In this document: positions 1 through 8,825 of the stretch, in pieces | Numbering within the stretch: the first letter of the stretch is position 1 | How the letters are laid out: every line of letters starts with the position of its first letter | From: Deltaproteobacteria bacterium | Lineage (GTDB): Bacteria; Myxococcota_A; Polyangia; Polyangiales; Ga0077539 | Assembly: GCA_030694465.1 (NCBI GenBank) | Contig: JAUXYJ010000013.1 | Span: 1 to 36,320 of the forward strand | Length of the DNA stretch: 36,320 nucleotides | Reading direction: 5' to 3' | The notes under the pieces: model-generated | Databases searched by the model: none | What the model was told of the DNA's origin: nothing | The model's input: the letters and a program-made list of their open reading frames with translations, nothing else | Position numbers and translations under genes: made by a program

Positions 1-203
1 CTCGCTGCGGCGGTGGCACTGCGCGTCCGGCGAGTCGCTAACGCATCGCATGCAAGCGCTACGCGCCAGCATGCGACGCTCGCTCCTCGGCGGTCGCTCC
101 GTGCTTTTTCCCGCCGCAGCCATCCTCATCATCACCCCCCAGTGGGCACACTGGACTGGGCGCCTCTTCTTCTCCTTCGTCCGGCACGAAGGAGAAGAAG
201 AGG
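1..203 (-). repeat. Left arm of copy 1 (hairpins H1 and H2)
   Basis: Reading outward on the minus strand. H1 is 163-203: an 18-bp perfect stem (left strand cctcttcttctccttcgt) around a 5-nt loop. H2 is 46-76: an 8-bp stem TCGCATGC/GCATGCGA (46-53 with 69-76), a 2x2 internal loop, then GCGC/GCGC (56-59 with 63-66) around a three-base loop. The block 82-125 between them is one half of the 44-bp perfect inverted repeat. About 125 bp (1-125) is almost identical to 7435-7559. Confidence 0.8.
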
Positions 204-472
204 GGTCACTCGGTCGGGCTCAAGAGCGCAATGGAGCTGGATTTATCCTAACGAAGTGAGACAACAGAGCACTTCACTGTGTACCCCAGCGACGTCGCCG
301 GGTCAATCGTGTTGCCGCGGAATGCACGGCACCCAGTGATTGAGCAAGTGCACCCAGCGACGTCGCCGGATGGGAGCAACGAGCTGCGAGCAACGGGCTG
401 CGAGCAACGGGTAACGCGGGGCCGCAGATGGGTGCTTCATTGCGTAGATTGTCTGGGAAATCCCAGCTGAAA
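204..472. repeat. Core of copy 1 between the two H1 hairpins
   Basis: A roughly 270-bp core. It holds the palindrome gcgacgtcgc twice (289-298 and 357-366) and a 14-bp unit beginning gagcaacg repeated three times from 374, 388 and 402. A short palindrome, ctgggaaatcccag, lies near 453-466, next to the right H1 hairpin. The same landmarks occur in the core of copy 2 but in reverse orientation. No open frame with coding character was seen. Confidence 0.65.
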
Positions 473-832
473 CCCCCTTCTTGCCTTCGTGCCGGACGAA
501 GGCGAGAAGGGGGCCCCCGGCACCCACTGTGACGCGGTGGGGGATGAGTGGATGGCTGCGGCGGGAAAAAGCACGGAGCGACCGCCGAGGAGCATGCTGC
601 GTTGGCTTTGCGCTTTAGCGCTTTGCCAACGTGGCGTGCGACTCGCCGGACGCGCAGTGCCACCGCCGCAGCGAGGTCCATCAAGTCCACATTCGCGCAC
701 CGTGTTTTCAGTGAGGGCTCGGCCCACCGTGTCCAGGGATAAGAGCCCGCCGTATGCACCGTGTGCATACGCGCGTGCGAGCGTCGCCAGAGCCCAGTGA
801 GCAGGGTCCATCGGGTGTGGGCCCACTGCGCT
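473..832 (+). repeat. Right arm of copy 1 (hairpins H1, H2, H3)
   Basis: H1 is 473-513, an 18-bp stem (left strand cccccttcttgccttcgt) with one T-G wobble and a 5-nt loop. H2 is 599-632: stem cgttggc/gccaacg (600-606 with 625-631), a ttt/ttt internal loop, then GCGCT/AGCGC (610-614 with 617-621). H3 is 752-770: GTATGCAC, loop cgt, GTGCATAC. A second H3 copy lies in the tail at 969-987. H1-to-H2 spacing is 86 bp and H2-to-H3 spacing 120 bp, as in the right arm of copy 2. The block 550-593 is the other half of the 44-bp inverted repeat. Confidence 0.8.
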
Positions 833-1190
833 CTCTTCACGCAACCCTGCACTTTCGCACACGGATCTCACTGTGCCCGCACCCGCCGCACCCCGCGCGC
901 GGCTCCGGCCCACTGCGCTCTTCACGCAACCCTGCCCTTTCGCACACGGATCCATTGGACCCGTGGCCGTATGCACCGTGTGCATACGCGCGTGCGAGCG
1001 TCGCCAGAGCCCAGTGAGCAGAGTCACCCGCGCGAGGGCCCACTACACCGCGCACGTGGCTGCGGCCCACTGCGCTCTTCACGCAACCCTGCACTTTCGC
1101 ACACGGATCTCACTGGACCCATCGCCCACTGCACCGCGCACGTGGCTGCGGCCCACTGCGCTCTGCGCCCACACCCGTTACCCTGTCGCA
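833..1190 (+). repeat. Tandem 85-86 bp units, tail of copy 1
   Basis: Units are anchored by ctcttcacgcaac or close variants at 833, 918, 1075 and 1161. Spacings are 85, 157 and 86 bp. The long interval contains a partial duplication of the H3 region (969-987 and flank). Each unit also carries a segment like ctttcgcacacggatctcac and a variable stretch ending in tgcggccca. Lengths of 85 and 86 are not multiples of three, so translation shifts frame from unit to unit. This argues against a repeat protein. Confidence 0.75.
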
Positions 1191-1273
1191 GACCACCCTC
1201 CGGCGACGCGGTCACACAACAATCGCTCCCACGCGCGTGCCCACGCAGCCCCTGCGCGCTGTACCCTGCGTCC

Positions 1274-2833
1274 ATGTGGGCTTCCGTGCGAGCAGTGTGT
1301 CTCTCTGTCGCGATGACCTTCGCGACGGGCTGCATATCCCCCGCGACCGTCGTCCACGTGCAGATCGACACCGACGCGCCCATCACGCAAGAGCTCACGT
1401 TTCAAGCGACCTTGGCCACACGCGATGGAAGCCAAATGGCACAGACCCCGCGGTGGATCCGCGGAGGCCCGCGCGGTGCGGTCACGCTCCCGGCGTCCTT
1501 CTCGTTGGTCCCTGGCCAGGGACCTCGCGATGCAGCCGTCACGCTCTTCGTCGACGCCACACTCACCACGCCTTCCGTTGGAACCGCTCCCGCGGTGACC
1601 CTCACGTTTCGCCGCACCGCGCAGTTTGAGTTTCGACCCCGCGAGGGCTGGAGACTCCGAGTGTTCATCGCCACGCAGTGCTTTGCGCAGGCCACCGGCT
1701 GCACTGGCACCTCCGCGTGCACCGTCGCTGCGCGGTGCCAAGAGCGCGGTCTCACCTGCGGTGACGAAGGCCAGTGTGTCGCCCCCTCTGCCGAGCTCGA
1801 ACGCGAGGACGGCGACGTATTTGCGCCTCCGCTCCGTGACGCCGCCCCACCGATGGACACCTCGGTAGACCTAGACGCACGGGACGTTGCAACGATGGAC
1901 GAGGAGCCTACTTCTGCGCCCGAGGTGTCGTGTCCAAGTGGCGTCGCCTGTGGCACGAGCTGCGTCAGTCTCAGCGACGATCCGCGCCACTGTGGACGCT
2001 GCGACAACGCGTGCCCCGTGGGTCAGGGCTGCGTGGGCGCGATGTGCACCGCGTGTATCCCGCCCAACACCATGTGCGACGCCGAGTGCGCGAATACACT
2101 GACCAATATCAGACATTGTGGCGCTTGCGGCGCTGCGTGTCCCACCGGCGCGAGCTGCACCGCGGGCGTCTGTCGTTGCCGCCTTGGCGAGTCCGTCTGC
2201 AATGGCGCGTGCAGGCTCACCGGCGGCGCGTGCTCGGTGGGCGTAGGCGCCTGCCAGCGGCCCGGACTGATCATCTGCACTTCCACAGGTCTCCAATGCA
2301 GCGCGACGGCCGGGGCGCCCCAAGCAGAGGTCTGCAACGGACGCGATGACAACTGCGACGGGACCGTGGACGAAGACCCCGCGTGCATAGAGTGCCTCAC
2401 CCTCCCCACGGTGACCACGATTGAGAACCTTACGCTCACGCGCGGTGATCGCGAGTTCGAAGGCCACGGTCCCGACGTGAGGCTCTCGGTGAACTACGCG
2501 ATCGTGGGCTCGCAAGTGCAGGCCCAGGCCTGTGTGACCATGACCGAAACACAGTCTGACTGGACCACAGGGACAGGCTGCCGGACAGTGCTAAGCGCGG
2601 CCGCTGCGACCCCCATCGACGCTGTCTTGGACGTGAACTATCTGCGCACGTACCGCGACAGCAACCACAGCTGCGATGTGCTCGCTGCGGGCCCTGGCGT
2701 GTCGAGCGCGACGTGCATCGGTGACACAAGCGGCGACGACGTGTGCGTCGGAGCGTTCAATTGCGGATCCACGAGCTGCGCGTCGTGTCAGCTCCGGATG
2801 AGCTGCGTGAGGGTCCGCCGTCGCGGAATGTAG
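1274..2833 (+). CDS. Cys-rich myxobacterial lipoprotein with MopE-like motif
   Basis: 519-residue exported lipoprotein of unknown function. The start at 1274 is chosen because it gives a short hydrophobic signal ending in a lipobox (ATGC, Cys at about residue 18); the open frame continues upstream only through the repeat element. Residues about 20-130 look like a beta-rich domain. A Cys-rich middle follows with repeated CGxxC...HCGxCxxxCPxGxxC units (about residues 215-300). Then comes one EVCNGRDDNCDGTVDEDPAC motif of the MopE/metal-binding type and a C-terminal region with further Cys pairs. Such Cys/Asp modules are common in myxobacterial surface proteins, and metal binding is inferred from the motif only. 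It converges on the next gene with 3 bp between stops. The tail of repeat copy 1 ends about 85 bp upstream. Confidence 0.85.
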   Translation: MWASVRAVCLSVAMTFATGCISPATVVHVQIDTDAPITQELTFQATLATRDGSQMAQTPRWIRGGPRGAVTLPASFSLVPGQGPRDAAVTLFVDATLTTPSVGTAPAVTLTFRRTAQFEFRPREGWRLRVFIATQCFAQATGCTGTSACTVAARCQERGLTCGDEGQCVAPSAELEREDGDVFAPPLRDAAPPMDTSVDLDARDVATMDEEPTSAPEVSCPSGVACGTSCVSLSDDPRHCGRCDNACPVGQGCVGAMCTACIPPNTMCDAECANTLTNIRHCGACGAACPTGASCTAGVCRCRLGESVCNGACRLTGGACSVGVGACQRPGLIICTSTGLQCSATAGAPQAEVCNGRDDNCDGTVDEDPACIECLTLPTVTTIENLTLTRGDREFEGHGPDVRLSVNYAIVGSQVQAQACVTMTETQSDWTTGTGCRTVLSAAAATPIDAVLDVNYLRTYRDSNHSCDVLAAGPGVSSATCIGDTSGDDVCVGAFNCGSTSCASCQLRMSCVRVRRRGM

Positions 2834-2836
2834 CCC

Positions 2837-3535
2837 TCAGCGATACGTCGGCAGCGGCTGGTCGTGCACCACAGCCACCCAGCTCCCAAACAAATCCCGC
2901 ACAAAGAGCGCCGCATGCTCGGGCGTCCGCGAGAAAGCACCCAGGTGATACACGATCGAGACCTCGGTCACCGTGTCGCTCACCCGCTGCGCGCTCGCGC
3001 TCCCACGCATGAGCTCAATAAACGAGCTCCCGCGCACTTTTTGCCACCTCGCCGCGAGCACCTGCGGGTCTTGCTCGGTTCCTGCCGCGAGCCCGTGCCG
3101 CCACTCGACGTCGAAGATCACCGTGGCCGCCGCGCGAACAATGTTGTGGGTGCTCCAGCTCTGGACGTACGCAGGGTTGCTCTGCGGTGTGACCCTAAAC
3201 TCCGTGACCTCGCGGCGGTCCGCGCACGCCTCCGCGTTGCGCATCGCAGACCACACCCGCGCCAACGGAGCCCGAATGTACCCACGCGCGTGCACCCAGC
3301 TGTACTCGCGCCCATCGGGAAGCGTCTGCGTGCCCATCAGCACCGTGAGCGTCTCAGGTGTGGGCTCCGTCGCGCTCGTCGGCAACGTCGCCGTGTTGTC
3401 CTCGATGGGCTCGAGCCCCATCGGAAACTGCGTCTGAATATCCCGAGCACAGCCGCTCGCCGACACCCCACTCAGCACACTCAGCACCACGGTGAGAGCC
3501 CGCAGGCGACGCCCGATCTTCTCTGTTCGCTCCAT
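2837..3535 (-). CDS. START/SRPBCC-like lipoprotein
   Basis: 232-residue lipoprotein from the ATG at 3535 (MERTEKIG...). A GTG at 3556 would add seven residues, but neither start has a clear ribosome binding site. The signal ends in ASGC, followed by a short Thr/Pro linker. The body, beginning near the motif YSWVHARGYIRAPLARVW, has the look of a helix-grip START/polyketide-cyclase fold: a beta-strand, then IRAPLARVWSAMRN, then alternating strands with EFRVTPQ, TVIFDVEWRH and TEVSIVYHLGAFSRT. Such domains bind hydrophobic ligands; the ligand here is unknown. The fold call is from sequence pattern and moderately sure. It is convergent with the gene ending at 2833. Confidence 0.75.
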   Translation of the reverse strand: MERTEKIGRRLRALTVVLSVLSGVSASGCARDIQTQFPMGLEPIEDNTATLPTSATEPTPETLTVLMGTQTLPDGREYSWVHARGYIRAPLARVWSAMRNAEACADRREVTEFRVTPQSNPAYVQSWSTHNIVRAAATVIFDVEWRHGLAAGTEQDPQVLAARWQKVRGSSFIELMRGSASAQRVSDTVTEVSIVYHLGAFSRTPEHAALFVRDLFGSWVAVVHDQPLPTYR

Positions 3536-3818
3536 AAGGGAGCGCGATTGCAGCACACTCTGAACCCGCAGTGGGTCTGACGTTCGTCAGTGAATTTGCT
3601 GCACGAGCGGCGTTCATCGAAGCGTCAAGAGACCGGCCAACCACCGCGCGCGAGTACAGCGCAAGGACGACAGCGAGAGCGCAGCCGTAGCGCGATGGCC
3701 CTCACGCGAGGGTCGCACTGAGCACGATCCGCACCGTGCAAAACAGTCCAGGATCCCACCCGGTTCACAGTGTGTCTTGTCGAACCATGGGCCCCCTCCC
3801 CAAGGACTCAAAACGAAC

Positions 3819-4193
3819 TCAGCGCGCGGTGTACGAGATGTGTCCGTCTTCACCGTTGAAGGTGATCGAGGTGAGGGTGCAGAGGTTCACCCCGTGCACG
3901 TCGTTGTTGTGGCCGTCGATGGTGACCCGGACGTCGAACACGCACTGTCCGCGGTAGTTTGTCGGGCGAAACAAGAGGTGATGGCTGGCATTGTTGGCGA
4001 TTACGCCGCTGCCGAGCTGGTCTGGCCCCCACGCAGTCTGGTTGCTTGGGCTCACATACAAGTGCGTGATGGTATCGCCCGTGTGGTTGACCACCGTAAA
4101 GTCGCGGTCCACCCGTTGCGCGTCTGCCACGCTGGACGACGCCACGAGGCCAAGAGTCAAGAGACCAAAAAGACCGAAAGAACGCCTGTTCAT
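3819..4193 (-). CDS. Small secreted beta-rich protein
   Basis: 124-residue exported protein. The start at 4193 follows a gtgagg ribosome binding site and begins a clear signal peptide (MNRRSFGLFGLLTLGLVASS, cleavage likely after VADA). The open frame extends farther upstream, but that part has no coding look. The mature part is about 100 residues with the pattern DFTVVNHTGDTITHLYVSPS then WGPDQLGSGVI, and two cysteines that could pair. This 'LYVSPS..W G.D.LG' pattern occurs in small exported proteins of proteobacteria, some carrying misleading enzyme names in databases. A beta-sandwich is likely and the function unknown. It stands alone; 283 bp separate it from the START-like gene, with nothing recognisable in between. 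Confidence 0.8.
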   Translation of the reverse strand: MNRRSFGLFGLLTLGLVASSSVADAQRVDRDFTVVNHTGDTITHLYVSPSNQTAWGPDQLGSGVIANNASHHLLFRPTNYRGQCVFDVRVTIDGHNNDVHGVNLCTLTSITFNGEDGHISYTAR

Positions 4194-4899
4194 AGAGACC
4201 TCACGAATGATGCAACGCGGGGGTTTGGGAGTGCCCGGCCCTGATGCCAAACACTGCAACGAGACGTTGACCAAACCTGCCTGACATCGACGGCTACAAC
4301 GTGCAAATTCTGACTGCAGGAGCATAACTCCCCATGTCATCTCGACGTCAACGGCAAACAATGGCTCCGACCGGCCCGAAAAAGCCCCCACCGGTGTCCA
4401 CCGCCTTACGCGTCACGCAACGCGCTCCCGGTGCGACTCGTCGGTCATCCGTTGGGCCCTTAGGAGCGATGAGGGCTGGACCGCTCGCCCAGCGCCGCCC
4501 CGCCGCCGTCCCCCTTAAGCCCCTCCAAGGCGCCCAACCTAGGCAGTCCCTCACCGCCTGCCCCCGTCTCGAAGCGCTCTCCCAGGCACTCACGAAGCAC
4601 TGTCCCTCATCGCGAGGGCCCATTTTTGCTATTGGACCCATCACAATTCATTCTCAGAAACCAAGGATCGCTTTGCACAAGCCTCTTCGTGGCTGACCAG
4701 AACCAATCAGCGCTTCTGAGACTACGTTGATTCACCCTGCAGAACCTATTTTTGCTTCCAGACCACTGCTCGCTCACCCTTTAGAACCTATTTTTGTGAT
4801 TTTCTATACTCTCACCCCGTAGCCGCGAGCCCAAAGAAGGCCCAACCCCACCCCCCGAAGCCCCTACGCTGGCCCACGGAGAGAGCGATTCAACCCCTC
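4194..4899. other. 706-bp intergenic region, no convincing gene
   Basis: Upstream of two divergent genes. A 120-codon plus-strand frame at 4334-4696 is Arg/Pro-rich, has weak third-position GC bias and no family resemblance, so it is not called. The segment 4617-4815 is notably AT-richer than the surroundings and carries a repeated 14-mer (separate entry). TATACT at 4805-4810 resembles a sigma-70 -10 box for the gene at 4900, but no good -35 was found. Confidence 0.6.
4741..4796. promoter_or_regulatory. Direct repeat agaacctatttttg, possible operator
   Basis: The 14-mer occurs exactly at 4741-4754 and 4783-4796, 42 bp apart (about four helical turns). A related ggcccatttttgct lies at about 4617. 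A TATACT -10-like box sits 9 bp after the second copy, and the gene at 4900 follows. The arrangement suggests regulator binding sites. This is inference; no regulator is known. Confidence 0.35.
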
Positions 4900-5634
4900 A
4901 TGTCCCCTGTTCTGAGCCTCGAAGAGCGCGCCGCGGCCCTGACACCCGCCCAAGTCCGCCGCCCCAATGTCAACGTGGGCGCCGCGTGCTCGATCGTCCT
5001 GGGCAATTTATCGCGCGTGAAAGAGCACCTACCCGACATCCTTGAGGTGATTCCGGGCTTTGACACAGACCTGGTCCACGGCCTGCGCGCGCTCGCGAGT
5101 TTCACGCTGAGCGCCTATGGGGCTCCCCTGGGCCAAGGCGTCGCTGACAAGCGCGGTGCAGAATACCGTGCAGCCCTCGCGCTGCGCGAGAAGCTCACCC
5201 GCAGCGCCGAGGCGTTGAGCTTACTTGGGCTCGCCAAGCCCCCCAACATCGCCGAAATCCGCGCGATCCCACGGTCTTACCCACAGCTTCCGCTGGCTCT
5301 TCTGGCCCTGCAGACCTTCTTTCTCACCCACCGCGAGGCCCTCGAAGGCCGCCTAGACCTTCCGTGGAGCGAAATCGTCGCACTCGACACGCTCGCCACC
5401 CGCTTGTCCCTCGAGGGCAGCAAGCGCTTTATCCGCGAGAAGCCCCCCAGCAGCAGCGACCAGACCCTGCGCGCGTACACGCTAATGGCCAACGCCTACG
5501 ACGAGGTCCGCGCCGCGCTCGCGTACGTCCGACGTCACCACCACGACGCCGACCGCATCGCCCCTCCGTTTGCCAACCGCCGAGGCTCGGTGGCCGTCCC
5601 CGCGCGCAAAGACCCGCCCGCCGAGACCCCCTGA
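4900..5634 (+). CDS. Helical cytoplasmic protein of unknown function
   Basis: 244-residue protein with no signal peptide or membrane segment; I do not recognise the family. The sequence is almost entirely helix-forming, with several Leu/Ala-rich stretches (residues about 45-80, 85-110, 125-150, 160-215), and ends in a basic, disordered tail rich in Arg, His and Pro. A region such as RVKEHLPDILEVIPGFDTDLVHGL looks like a folded all-alpha core. The start at 4900 has GGAGAG about 15 bp upstream. The gene converges on the beta-propeller lipoprotein with 9 bp between stops. The AT-rich repeat region upstream may control it. Confidence 0.75.
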   Translation: MSPVLSLEERAAALTPAQVRRPNVNVGAACSIVLGNLSRVKEHLPDILEVIPGFDTDLVHGLRALASFTLSAYGAPLGQGVADKRGAEYRAALALREKLTRSAEALSLLGLAKPPNIAEIRAIPRSYPQLPLALLALQTFFLTHREALEGRLDLPWSEIVALDTLATRLSLEGSKRFIREKPPSSSDQTLRAYTLMANAYDEVRAALAYVRRHHHDADRIAPPFANRRGSVAVPARKDPPAETP

Positions 5635-5643
5635 CGGGCTTGG

Positions 5644-6978
5644 TTACCGCGCGTTAGTGTTTTCGGGGCCCCCTCGCGCAGAGGGCCAGCCCGTCTCAGA
5701 GACGCCACGAGACTCTGCGGCGACGGCCGCGAGCAGGTCCGTCTCGGTGATCACGTACACGTCCCCAAAGGGAGAGAGCACCGGCGCCGCGCGCAAGAGC
5801 CCGCCCGAGACCGAGAGAGACCAGCGCTCGCGGCCCGTAGGCTCAATCGCAATCACGCGCGAACCCACCGCGAGATAAGTGACCCCGTCGCGGTCCACCG
5901 TGTGCGTCGCGTCGTGCAAGAAGTCTTGCGGGCCACCGCTGCCCGGCGCGGTCCAGCGCGGCGTCCCATCCGGCGCAAACGAGTAGAGCAACCCGGGAGA
6001 AGTGTTTCCGAGCTTGAGATACACGCTCACGCTGCCGTCGGGCGAGACCACAGGGGCGCCCACCACAAGGCCCGTCTGCCCCGAAGTGCTGGTCCGAAGA
6101 GTGCTTCGCCAGCGCTCGCGCCCCGTGCGAAGGTCCTTGGCGACGAGCACATACGTGCGGATCCCGAAGAGCATCGCGTAGAGCGTGTCGGCTGTGACCG
6201 CGGGGCCCACGACGTGTCGGCGGGTTCCGTCGAGGATCTCGTCGGTGGGACCGTCCCAGAGCATGCGCTCTGCGCGAAGATCAAACGCACGATCAAAGCA
6301 CGCCAAGATCGTCCCCGAGACCGCGCACTCTTCGCCATTGCGAAACTCCCGCGCCAACGTCCGTCGCACGCCATCGCGCGAAAACTGCGCGAGCTCAAAC
6401 CGCGTAGACTCACCGCTCCACGCAAGCACGAGCGGTCCTTGACCCGCAGGCACCCCAAAGAAAGAGCTCAACGTTCGATCAATCGCCAGCGCCCCGAGCG
6501 CCATCCCGTCGCGCTCGTAGCGAAAGACCCCGTACCGCGCATTGCCCCCAACGCTGTTGGTCAACAGCAGCCGCCCGTCGTCCTGAATCCGCGCGTAGGG
6601 TCGCTGCGCGATGTTGCGCGTGGCCGCGGTTCCGACCCACCCGGGGGTTCTCCACAGCAGCACGCCACAGGGGCTCACCGCAGCGAGCCCACGGCCCCCC
6701 TCGGGCTCGACCGTGGGCACATAGATCGTCCCATCGCGGCCCACCGCCGGGTGACCCGTAAAGCCCGCAAGCGTCCACCGCAGAAGCCCCCCGGGCAGCG
6801 AGCGATCGAGACACCCCGGCGCTGTCACATCGGGACGGGTCACATCGGGACTGCTCGCATCGGGACTGCTCGCATCGGGCAGAGGGATCTGGGGTGCGAT
6901 GACGGCGATGAGCTCAGAGCGGGCGCCACAGGCGGCCAAGGGCAGAGCGAGACAGAGCGCAAGCGCGTGGGTTTTCAC
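5644..6978 (-). CDS. PQQ-like beta-propeller lipoprotein
   Basis: 444-residue lipoprotein. The start is a GTG at 6978, giving VKTHALALCLALPLAAC with lipobox LAAC; the open frame runs farther upstream only into repeat DNA. After the lipid-Cys comes a linker with the unit DASSPD/DVTxPD repeated four times. The rest resembles a PQQ-type (BamB-like) propeller. Repeated blades include GLLRWTLAGFTGHPAVGRDG, GRERWRST with GAPVVSPDGSVSVY, GTPRWTAPG and GRERWSLSVSGGLLRAAPVL; each has the pattern W-x-x-x...P-x-x-x-x-D/G. Such proteins are usually scaffolds or sensors at the outer membrane. No enzymatic cofactor ligands were recognised. It lies next to repeat copy 2, whose left end begins about 60 bp upstream. 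Confidence 0.82.
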   Translation of the reverse strand: MKTHALALCLALPLAACGARSELIAVIAPQIPLPDASSPDASSPDVTRPDVTAPGCLDRSLPGGLLRWTLAGFTGHPAVGRDGTIYVPTVEPEGGRGLAAVSPCGVLLWRTPGWVGTAATRNIAQRPYARIQDDGRLLLTNSVGGNARYGVFRYERDGMALGALAIDRTLSSFFGVPAGQGPLVLAWSGESTRFELAQFSRDGVRRTLAREFRNGEECAVSGTILACFDRAFDLRAERMLWDGPTDEILDGTRRHVVGPAVTADTLYAMLFGIRTYVLVAKDLRTGRERWRSTLRTSTSGQTGLVVGAPVVSPDGSVSVYLKLGNTSPGLLYSFAPDGTPRWTAPGSGGPQDFLHDATHTVDRDGVTYLAVGSRVIAIEPTGRERWSLSVSGGLLRAAPVLSPFGDVYVITETDLLAAVAAESRGVSETGWPSARGGPENTNAR

Positions 6979-7059
6979 AGGGATGATGACGGCGAGGGTA
7001 CCACGGCGGGTGAGAGGTGAACGACACCGAGTGCAGGGGGGGGGTGCCAGAGCGCTGGA

Positions 7060-7290
7060 GTGCGTGAAGAGCGCGCGGTTAGGCGGGTGTGGGGCTCCGA
7101 GCGAAAGGGCGATGGGTTGCGTGAGGAGTGCACTGGGCCGCAGCGACGTACGCGGTGTAGCGGGTTCGGGCGCAGTGAGATCCACGTGCGAAAGGGCAGG
7201 GTTGCGTGAAGCGCGCAGCGGGCCGCGGCTGCGTACGCGGTCAAGTGGGTGTGGGTCTCCATGGGATCCGCGTGAAGAGCCCACTGGGCC
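7060..7290 (-). repeat. Tandem units, left tail of copy 2
   Basis: Minus-oriented units anchored by gcgtgaagag or variants at 7062, 7119, 7204 and 7270, with spacings of 57, 85 and 66 bp. One full unit and shortened ones are present. They are the reverse complement of the unit in the right tails. Confidence 0.65.
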
Positions 7291-7636
7291 CACCCCCGAT
7301 GGACCCTGCCCAGTGGGCACTTGCGACGCTCGCACGCTCGTATGTGCACGGCACATACGGCGGGCTCATGTCCCTGGCCCCAGTGGGCCGAGCACCCGCT
7401 GAAAACACGGTGCGCGAATGTGGACTTGATTTACCTCGCTGCGGCGGTGGCACTGCGCGTCCGGCGAGTCGCTAACGCATCGCATGCAAGCACTTCGTGC
7501 CAGCATGCGACGCTCGCTCCTCGGCGGTCGCTCCGTGCTTTTTCCCGCCGCAGCCATCCACTCATCCCCCACCGCGTCACAGTGGGTGCCGTGGGCCCCC
7601 TTCTCGCCTTCGTCCGGCACGAAGGCAAGAAGGGGG
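7291..7636 (-). repeat. Left arm of copy 2 (hairpins H3, H2, H1)
   Basis: H3 is 7340-7358: GTATGTGC, loop acg, GCACATAC. H2 is 7480-7510: stem TCGCATGC/GCATGCGA, 2x2 internal loop, then GCAC/GTGC (7490-7493 with 7497-7500) around ttc. H1 is 7596-7636 and, read outward, is identical over 41 nt to H1 of the right arm of copy 1. The 44-bp block 7516-7559 is identical to 82-125. Confidence 0.8.
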
Positions 7637-7830
7637 GTTTAGCCTGGGATTTCCCTAGCGAGATACACTATTTAACCCGCTGCAGCACCCTCGTTGCTCG
7701 TTGCTCGTTGCTCTCATTCGGCGACGTCGCCGGGGGGGGGCACAGTGAATTCATCGAGGCCCAAGAGCTCAATTTGCTAGAGATACAGACGGCCTAATTG
7801 TGCACTCTGCGAGAGAAAAACCTGGTGACC
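7637..7830. repeat. Core of copy 2, inverted relative to copy 1
   Basis: About 194 bp with the 12-bp palindrome ggcgacgtcgcc (7720-7731), three 7-bp cgttgct units (7692-7712) and a short ctgggattt block next to the left H1. These landmarks correspond to the core of copy 1 read on the opposite strand. A G-run (about 7732-7740) follows the palindrome. The core is shorter than in copy 1 and has diverged. Confidence 0.65.
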
Positions 7831-8187
7831 CCTCTTCTTCTCCTTCGTGACGGACGAAGGAGAAGAAGAGGCGCCCAGCCCAGTGTGCCCAGTGTGGGGT
7901 GATGATGAGGATGGCTGCGGGGCGTTAAGCACGGAGCGACCGCCGTGAAGCATGTCGCGTTGGCTTTGCGCGCAGCGCTTTGCCAACGTGACGTGCGCCA
8001 CGCCGGACGCGCAGTGCAGACCCCGCAGCGAGGTCCATCAAGTCCACATTCGCGCACCGTGTTTTCAGTGGGGGCTCGGCCCACTGGGTCCAGGTCCATG
8101 AGCCCGCCGTATGTGCCGTGCGCATACGAGCGAGCGAGCGTCGCCAGTGCCCACTGGGCAGGGTCCACCGGGGGTGGGCCCAGTGGG
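7831..8187 (+). repeat. Right arm of copy 2 (hairpins H1, H2, H3)
   Basis: H1 is 7831-7871: an 18-bp perfect stem identical to the left arm of copy 1, with loop gacgg. H2 is 7957-7989: cgttggc/gccaacg, ttt/ttt internal loop, GCGC/GCGC around gca. H3 is 8109-8127: GTATGTGC, loop cgt, GCGCATAC, with one G-T wobble. The inverted-repeat block 7909-7951 is degenerate compared with the other three copies (a few mismatches, 43 bp). Confidence 0.8.
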
Positions 8188-8645
8188 CTCTTCACGCAAC
8201 CCTTGCCCTTGCGCACACGGATCTCACTGCGCCCGAACCCGCTACACCGCGCACGTGGCTGCGGCCCACTGCGCGCTTCGCGCAACCCTTGCCCTTTCGC
8301 ACGCGGATCTCACTGCGCCCGAACCCGCTACGCCCTGTGCGTCGCTGCGGCCCACTGCGCGCTTCACGCAACCCTGCCCTTTCGCACACGGATCTCACTG
8401 CGCCCGCACCCACTTGACCGCGTACGCAGCCGCGGCCCACTGCGCGCTTCACGCAACCCTGCCCTTTCGCACGCGGATCTCACTGCTTCGGAACCCGCTA
8501 CGCCCCGTGCGTCGCTGCGGCCCACTGCGCTCTTCCCGCAACCCTTGCCCTTTCGCACACGGATCTCACTGCGCCCCACACCCACTTGACCGCGCACGTG
8601 GCTGCGGCCCACTGCGCTCTTCGCGCAGCCCTTCTGTTTCGCCCG
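8188..8645 (+). repeat. Tandem 85-87 bp units, right tail of copy 2
   Basis: Units are anchored at 8188, 8274, 8360, 8445, 8530 and 8617, with spacings of 86, 86, 85, 85 and 87 bp. Five units are nearly full length and the last is decaying. The constant part runs from the anchor to ggatctcactg. The variable part is a GC-rich stretch with alternatives such as gcacgtggctgcgg and gtgcgtcgctgcgg. The array is not in a constant reading frame. Confidence 0.8.
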
Positions 8646-8702
8646 TTGCCTCACGTGCGTCACCGCTGCCCATTCGCCCTCCGCCCTCGCATCACCGCGC
8701 GG

Positions 8703-8742
8703 CCCAATCGCCCAATCGCCCAATCGCCCAATCGCCCGATGG
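8703..8742. repeat. 8-bp tandem repeat cccaatcg
   Basis: Four perfect cccaatcg units (8703-8734) and a degenerate fifth (cccgatgg). It lies between the right tail of copy 2 and the gene at 8826. It looks like a simple-sequence repeat that could vary in copy number; no regulatory role is shown. Confidence 0.8.
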
Positions 8743-8825
8743 CCCTTGGCGGCCCTCCCCTGCGCGCTCACCCTTGCGCCCGCGCAACACCAGTGATACC
8801 CGCCTGAAGCTTCACCGGCTCTGCA

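What the first reader, a model, noticed from the sequence alone, without database searches (positions are those of the whole stretch)
1..8645. Two copies of a large, non-coding multi-hairpin inverted-repeat element
1-1190 (truncated) and 7037-8645 share the same plan: outward-reading arms with hairpins H1-H2-H3 at fixed spacing (H1 to H2 about 86 bp, H2 to H3 about 120 bp), a core between the H1 hairpins, and tandem 85-87 bp tails. This is seen directly. I recognise no described family: it is much larger than REP/BIME or typical MITEs and has no gene inside. It could be a non-autonomous mobile element, a structured ncRNA pair, or a chromosome-organising repeat.
Basis: partly seen in the sequence, partly recalled or inferred. 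Interest (0 to 1): 0.85.

Follow-up and report, generated by a model that had tools for sequence, protein, structure and literature searches.

The report
Giant gene-free hairpin-armed foldback repeats
About one-kilobase stretches of DNA without predicted genes, scattered between genes of a myxobacterial relative and a sister genus, keep one predicted hairpin design through matched mutations and likely spread as non-coding mobile DNA, with the enzyme that would move them still unknown.

Summary
1-1193 (cut by the contig start) and 7037-8645 are two copies of one interspersed repeat with outward arms H1-H2-H3 and tandem ~85-bp tails. Its own genome has 16-18 arms; relatives were found only in three genomes of one sister genus, out of 144 of the order searched. 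The arm is a defined structured unit: H1 is a near-perfect hairpin; H2 is closed by a covarying outer stem and is a ladder hairpin whose short helices change in matched pairs while an A.A mismatch (30/30 distinct arms) and a C.C mismatch (28/30) stay fixed. G.T wobble is almost absent there, which fits selection on a DNA fold. Each element joins two different arm types (10 of 10 evaluable pairs). One sister-genus copy of about 1 kb has an empty orthologous site in a congener. No predicted gene, Rfam family, plasmid or phage match was found, and no Y1/RAYT-type transposase in the genome. Best reading: a new, very large REPIN/foldback-like non-autonomous mobile repeat, moved in trans by an unidentified enzyme (inferred). 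Structured RNA is the main rival. The core also carries a 16-bp palindrome found 368 times in this genome and in none of 12 relatives.

The parts
1..1193 (.). Copy A (left arm cut by contig start; right tail to about 1193)
1..124 (-). Copy A, left (R-type) arm, H2 block, outward on - strand; cut at base 1
163..203 (-). Copy A H1, R type
286..301 (.). Core palindrome P (one mismatch to the 16-mer), first copy
354..369 (.). Core palindrome P (one mismatch to the 16-mer), second copy
372..412 (-). Degenerate heptads (GAGCAAC-like) of the core
473..513 (+). Copy A H1, L type
551..675 (+). Copy A right arm H2 block (outer stem plus ladder hairpin)
751..771 (+). Copy A H3 hairpin
830..1193 (+). Copy A right tail (85-bp and H3-like units)
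7037..8645 (.). Copy B, complete head-to-head element (outer limits approximate)
7037..7270 (-). Copy B left tail (85-bp units)
7339..7359 (-). Copy B left H3 hairpin
7435..7558 (-). Copy B left (L-type) arm H2 block
7596..7636 (-). Copy B H1, L type
7693..7713 (+). Core heptads (GTTGCTC)3
7718..7733 (.). Core palindrome P (single copy here, one mismatch to the 16-mer; two copies in A, C9 end, C39, C92, C12)
7831..7871 (+). Copy B H1, R type
7910..8032 (+). Copy B right (R-type) arm H2 block: outer stem, ladder with A.A and C.C mismatches
8108..8128 (+). Copy B right H3 hairpin
8187..8645 (+). Copy B right tail, about five 85-87 bp units

Best explanation
The two blocks are copies of a dispersed foldback repeat without predicted genes, whose two inverted, non-identical arms are predicted to fold as single strands into a fixed hairpin series and which likely spreads in trans through an unidentified enzyme that would recognise those folded arms. 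Shown: many copies in two genera, nearly all between predicted genes; H1-H2 conserved as a foldable design; matched changes on both sides of helices with fixed A.A and C.C mismatches; one arm of each of two types per element; one occupied/empty orthologous site. Inferred: folding on single-stranded DNA during replication or repair, binding of a recombinase to the mismatched ladder hairpin, and copying of the two-armed unit into intergenic DNA. Tails, heptads and solo arms would be secondary amplification and decay, as proposed for REP singlets derived from REPINs.
For: Copies: 102 pieces on 22 contigs; 16-18 arms own, 17 in G004, 2 in G006, 2 in G009, 0 in the other 140 of 144 order genomes (the 144-genome scan used stricter filters). 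Structure, counted so that neither half chose the sample: in 30 distinct blocks found by the outer stem alone, the ladder has A.A in 30 and C.C in 28 (T.C in 2), and its 14 stem positions are 407 WC, 3 G.T, 0 A.C, 10 other of 420; in 29 arms found by the ladder alone, 28 have a full 8-bp outer stem and one has 7 of 8. Outer-stem positions 1, 6, 7 and 8 change on both sides with no wobble (120 of 120 cells WC). On alignment A2, 8 of 15 ladder pairs change on both sides, covariation score 0.377 against 0.126 shuffled, slid versions at most 0.105. Two-type pairing: 5/5 in own genome and 5/5 evaluable in G004. Empty site: flanks of a G004 element 1,056 bases apart are 21 bases apart in G006. Five own-genome places share an identical 88-nt ladder.
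Against: No enzyme is linked to it; Y1_Tnp was not found in the own genome. No target-site duplication could be read. No near-identical full-length pair was seen: non-self matches run from 68 to 96% identity. Two other G004 copies gave no clean empty site: for L069 the G006 and G009 contigs end there, for L184 only one flank aligned in place. Arm order differs: head-to-head in the own genus, tail-to-tail in G004 and G006. The empty site could be a loss in G006. Predicted G.T pairs are commoner on the outward strand (52 of 841) than on the inward one (20 of 822), which a strand-specific RNA would also give. In one search the number of further pair types was not above shuffles (11 against 11.2; 362 of 500 as high) and 12 of 500 shuffles reached 8 double-changed pairs. 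Arms are related to each other, so counts are not independent events, and only intact arms enter them.
Confidence: 0.5

Rival explanations
1. Each arm is a structured non-coding RNA read outward (H1, H2, a conserved unpaired stretch with ACCGTGTTTTCAG, H3), present as inverted gene pairs, and dispersal is a by-product of recombination.
For: RNA z-score -8.5; a stretch after H2 like ACCGTGTTTTCAG is recognisable in many arms of three lineages, though changed in others; outward strand richer in G.T pairs, 52 of 841 against 20 of 822.
Against: Almost no wobble in the covarying stems; sequence before H1 differs between L arms, R arms and the sister genus, so no shared promoter is visible; no Rfam match at gathering score, and all 12 weak hits are miRNA models; one congener lacks the element at an orthologous site.
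Confidence: 0.22
2. A host-serving architectural repeat, like gyrase- or nucleoid-protein-binding BIMEs or transcription-end barriers, kept between genes by selection.
For: Nearly all places examined lie between predicted genes, and by my count 21 of 32 flanking gene ends in the own genome are 3' ends; the core contains palindrome P, which often follows stop codons; tandem units near 85 bp recur in both genera.
Against: Few copies for such a role; one congener lacks the element at an orthologous site; none in the other 9 genomes of the family.
Confidence: 0.13
3. A passive satellite: inverted duplications by foldback replication and tandem slippage keep the arms complementary without selection on hairpins.
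For: Tandem tails and heptads vary in number; long inverted arms up to 94% complementary; a different inverted repeat with the same heptads exists in G009.
Against: Templated repair between arms does not by itself keep A.A and C.C mismatches fixed inside a hairpin while flanking base pairs change together; each evaluable element keeps two different arm types.
Confidence: 0.12

Closest known systems
REPINs / REP-BIME elements (PMC3116915; abstract and 12 of 44 passages seen)
   Same: Inverted pair of structured units as replicative unit, intergenic, compensatory changes, singlets as remnants, no gene, presumed trans mobilisation
   Different: Here an arm is hundreds of bases with three hairpins and fixed mismatches, element 1-1.6 kb, tens of copies; no Y1/RAYT gene found in the genome
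Eukaryotic Foldback-type transposons (e.g. Tm1, Galileo; search listing only; architecture recalled)
   Same: Long inverted arms with internal tandem repeats around a variable middle
   Different: Bacterial host; arms carry conserved hairpins; no transposase relative found
MITEs (recalled)
   Same: Non-coding, non-autonomous, dispersed
   Different: Much longer; no target duplication could be read; no autonomous parent seen
Integron attC sites and IS200/IS605 ends (recalled)
   Same: Folded single-stranded hairpins whose unpaired bases are read by an enzyme
   Different: Symmetric A.A and C.C mismatches instead of bulged bases; no Y1 gene found; integrase not tested

Membership tests
REPIN/REP with RAYT | Y1-type tyrosine transposase (PF01797) in the genome | tested here: not met
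   0 hits in own genome (93.99% complete) while 11 of 13 family genomes hit
REPIN/REP with RAYT | Inverted pairs of structured extragenic units | tested here: met
REPIN/REP with RAYT | Short unit (16-mer ends, 71 bp apart in GI REPINs) | tested here: not met
   copy B about 1.6 kb; G004 copy about 1 kb
MITE / classical DNA transposon derivative | Terminal inverted repeats with target-site duplication | tested here: inconclusive
   large inverted arms yes; ends too diverged to read a duplication
Foldback element | Long inverted arms with internal tandem repeats | tested here: met
Foldback element | Insertion polymorphism | tested here: inconclusive
   three G004 copies tried: one occupied/empty site, two inconclusive
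Foldback element | Transposase relative or autonomous copy | not tested
   no gene seen inside copies; genome-wide transposase survey beyond PF01797 not run
Known structured RNA (Rfam) | Covariance-model match at gathering score | tested here: not met
   0 of 4227 families; 12 sub-threshold hits, all miRNA models
Integron attC | attC boxes and an integron integrase | not tested
   no integrase search run; symmetric mismatches differ from bulged attC bases (recalled)

The most novel reading that the evidence does not exclude
A new class of bacterial mobile DNA: kilobase foldback elements whose identity lies in a folded single-stranded ladder hairpin with obligatory A.A and C.C mismatches, built as an obligate pair of two arm types and moved by an enzyme family not yet known to read such DNA structures; the head-to-head and tail-to-tail forms would be permutations of one circular intermediate.
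Probability: 0.2. Interest if true: 0.86.

Novelty: new variant of a known kind. Interest (0 to 1): 0.62.

Why it matters
If right, bacteria have foldback-type mobile DNA roughly ten times larger than REPINs that does not rely on a resident RAYT enzyme, with a structure code (fixed mismatches between covarying helices) precise enough to fish for the enzyme. The repeat also sits at 17 of this assembly's 210 contig ends, so it bears on how such genomes are assembled, and it gives a natural sequence set for separating DNA-level from RNA-level selection on hairpins.

Tried and rejected
Known RNA family: no match at gathering score. Plasmid or phage origin: no match for 7825-8210 in either collection; no viral contig with the exact H2 pattern. 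RAYT mobilisation in this genome: no PF01797. A gene travelling with the element: in an all-against-all of 199 predicted proteins from the loci (some loci overlap, so some proteins are duplicates) no family flanks most copies. Matches that did appear: the gene right of copy A against the gene left of the C92 copy (37-45% over 84-115 aa) and that one against a gene beside a C30 tail piece (33% over 422 aa), kinase-like matches, ABC-like matches (L047 and L078, 41%) and L053 with L077 (60%) (these family names are my reading). tRNA: none in window. A and B as ends of one composite element carrying the genes between them: not supported, as the genes beside other copies are mostly unrelated. The MAFFT alignment misplaced the outer stem between genera, so a ladder-only alignment (A2) was used and the outer stem was counted by position. 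On re-checking I saw that the pattern behind itself fixes the A.A letters and some stem letters, and the pattern behind fixes outer-stem pairs 2-5; therefore recounts each half in arms chosen by the other half, and its numbers replace the A.A count (27/27 by construction; C.C there, 24 of 27, was free). H1 counts come from a pattern that asks for a paired stem and count both strands. L078 was first taken for the same element; only its heptads match. The genome scan also hit one Nocardioides and one Anaerolineales contig; no arm was found in them by the patterns, and I dropped them as chance. G023 gave one weak 40-base match to a tail (E 6.2e-4), also taken as chance.

Full report
What was checked. 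The window is a whole contig (C10) of a 7.2-Mb, 105-contig genome. Copy B (7037-8645) is complete, with arms 92% complementary over 203 nt and tails repeating every 85-86 bp. Copy A (1-1193) is the same element cut in its left arm by the contig start. The predicted fold is much stronger than in shuffles (z -9.0 DNA, -8.5 RNA).

Copies. The element matches 102 pieces on 22 contigs of its own genome (both strands counted). By my reading, 17 of the 210 contig ends have such a piece within 150 bases. A covariance model of the H2 ladder finds 18 arms in the own genome at E<=1, 16 of them below 1e-5. In 144 genomes of the order, scanned with stricter filters, it finds arms only in G000 (16), G004 (17), G006 (2) and G009 (2); the last three are one sister genus, and the 9 other genomes of the family have none. 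G006 has further pieces by DNA match, several at contig ends, so its count is low. A DNA search of 57 relatives also gave one weak tail match in G023, taken as chance. No match turned up in viral contigs (exact pattern), plasmids or phages.

Anatomy. Reading outward from the centre, an arm has H1 (near-perfect hairpin, pyrimidine-rich first strand; 12 of the 24 hairpins listed are perfect over the 16 bp counted), GATGG, an outer stem, the H2 ladder, an unpaired stretch (GTCCATCAAGTCCAC...CACCGTGTTTTCAG in copy B), H3, then tails. G009 arms have a more interrupted H1. In the own genus two arms sit head to head around a core with GGGATTTCCC, GTTGCTC-like heptads and two copies of palindrome P (one in copy B). 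In G004 and G006 two arms sit tail to tail, and in two G004 copies ~86-bp repeats lie outside H1, in one of them as a continuation of the inverted arms. G009 arms and L074 are solo. Each element joins two different arm types: L-type with R-type H1 in 5 of 5 own-genome pairs (A, B, C9 end, C39, C92), and GGAGCGACCG with GGAGGGAGCG ladders in 5 of 5 G004 pairs where both ladders were found; a sixth pair had one ladder unrecognised. Three solo arms of the own genome that could be read to their inner end are all R type (C9 start, C59, C93).

Structure under selection. The fairest count is. In 30 distinct blocks found by the outer stem alone, with the ladder register chosen only by its stems, the first single mismatch is A.A in 30 and the second C.C in 28 (T.C in 2). 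The 14 stem positions give 407 WC, 3 G.T, 0 A.C and 10 other of 420 cells. Between lineages the stems differ (for example CGG, CGC and CGT on the 3' side of the third helix) while A.A and C.C do not. In 29 arms found by the ladder alone, 28 have a full 8-bp outer stem. Outer-stem positions 1, 6, 7 and 8 are double-changed with 120 of 120 cells WC. On alignment A2, 8 of 15 pairs change on both sides (12 of 500 shuffles as high), 94.9% of cells pair (inflated, since the pattern that chose these arms fixes some letters), score 0.377 against 0.126 shuffled (0 of 500), best slid version 0.105; further pair types were not above shuffles (11 against 11.2). H1 types L and R differ by paired changes; the L type holds one conserved G.T. 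Wobble-poor covariation is what selection on a DNA fold would give. The contrary hint is that whole-ladder folding gives more G.T pairs on the outward strand (52 of 841) than on the inward one (20 of 822), so one strand may be the one that folds, as DNA or RNA.

Mobility. Flanks of a G004 element (L183) align collinearly to G006 contig C246, with 1,056 bases in G004 against 21 in G006 between the match ends. Two other G004 elements were inconclusive: for L069 the G006 and G009 contigs stop near the site, and for L184 only one flank aligned in place. For L183 in G009 the flanks lie on different contigs. Direction (gain or loss) is not known and no target duplication could be read. Flanks of own-genome copies were not tested in relatives.

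Context. Of the places examined, nearly all lie between predicted genes. Exceptions are a 60-base tail piece in L066 inside a low-scoring prediction, a predicted frame over H1 in L068, and the open frame left of copy B. By my count 21 of 32 flanking gene ends in the own genome (tail-only pieces included, one ambiguous flank left out) are 3' ends. No neighbour family flanks most copies, though a few neighbours match each other. Left of copy B is a PQQ/BamB-like protein reading away; right of it is a small protein without a Pfam match.

Mechanism. I commit to a REPIN/foldback-like non-autonomous element: the two-armed unit would be copied by an enzyme that reads the folded arms. The enzyme is not identified. 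PF01797 was not found in the own genome although 11 of 13 family genomes have it; other recombinase families were not surveyed. REPIN features used for comparison come from the abstract and 12 passages of PMC3116915. The paper searches listed nothing that describes this element; they cover only the held open library, and only listings were seen.

Palindrome P. CCGGCGACGTCGCCGG occurs 368 times in the own genome and 0 times in the other 12 family genomes, with 0 for the reversed control (the looser SSGCGACGTCGCCGG gives 444 and 439 on the two strands). In the contexts printed (21 lines, some overlapping, nearly all from contig C4) several place it directly after what looks like a stop codon. 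It is a separate high-copy repeat that the element's core carries.

Noticed in passing
own genome, e.g. near window 7718-7733; L105-L134: A 16-bp perfect palindrome CCGGCGACGTCGCCGG with 368 copies in this genome and none in 12 relatives, in several printed contexts right after what looks like a stop codon.
   Followed up: partly
L078 2190-2834 (G009): A different inverted repeat with arms 97% complementary over 183 nt, 41-bp tandem units outside and GAGCAAC heptads in the middle.
   Followed up: partly
L167 and L168 (G009), upstream of the arms: A hairpin-like sequence GGTTGGCAAACCCGCCGCTAGCGACG occurs before both arms and twice in L168.
   Followed up: no
L047 965-2896 and L078 2862-4478: ABC-type ATPase-like proteins (my reading) 41% identical, both with their 3' ends facing a large inverted repeat, in two genera.
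   Followed up: no
L053 458-3964 and L077 481-3000: Genes 60% identical over 754 aa lie next to element-related repeats in two genera but with opposite ends facing them.
   Followed up: no
tails 8187-8645; L183 2909-3042 and 3716-3826; L184 3888-3999: Different tandem repeats in two genera share a period of about 85-86 bp.
   Followed up: no
window 8702-8745: Octamer tandem GCCCAATC just outside copy B.
   Followed up: no
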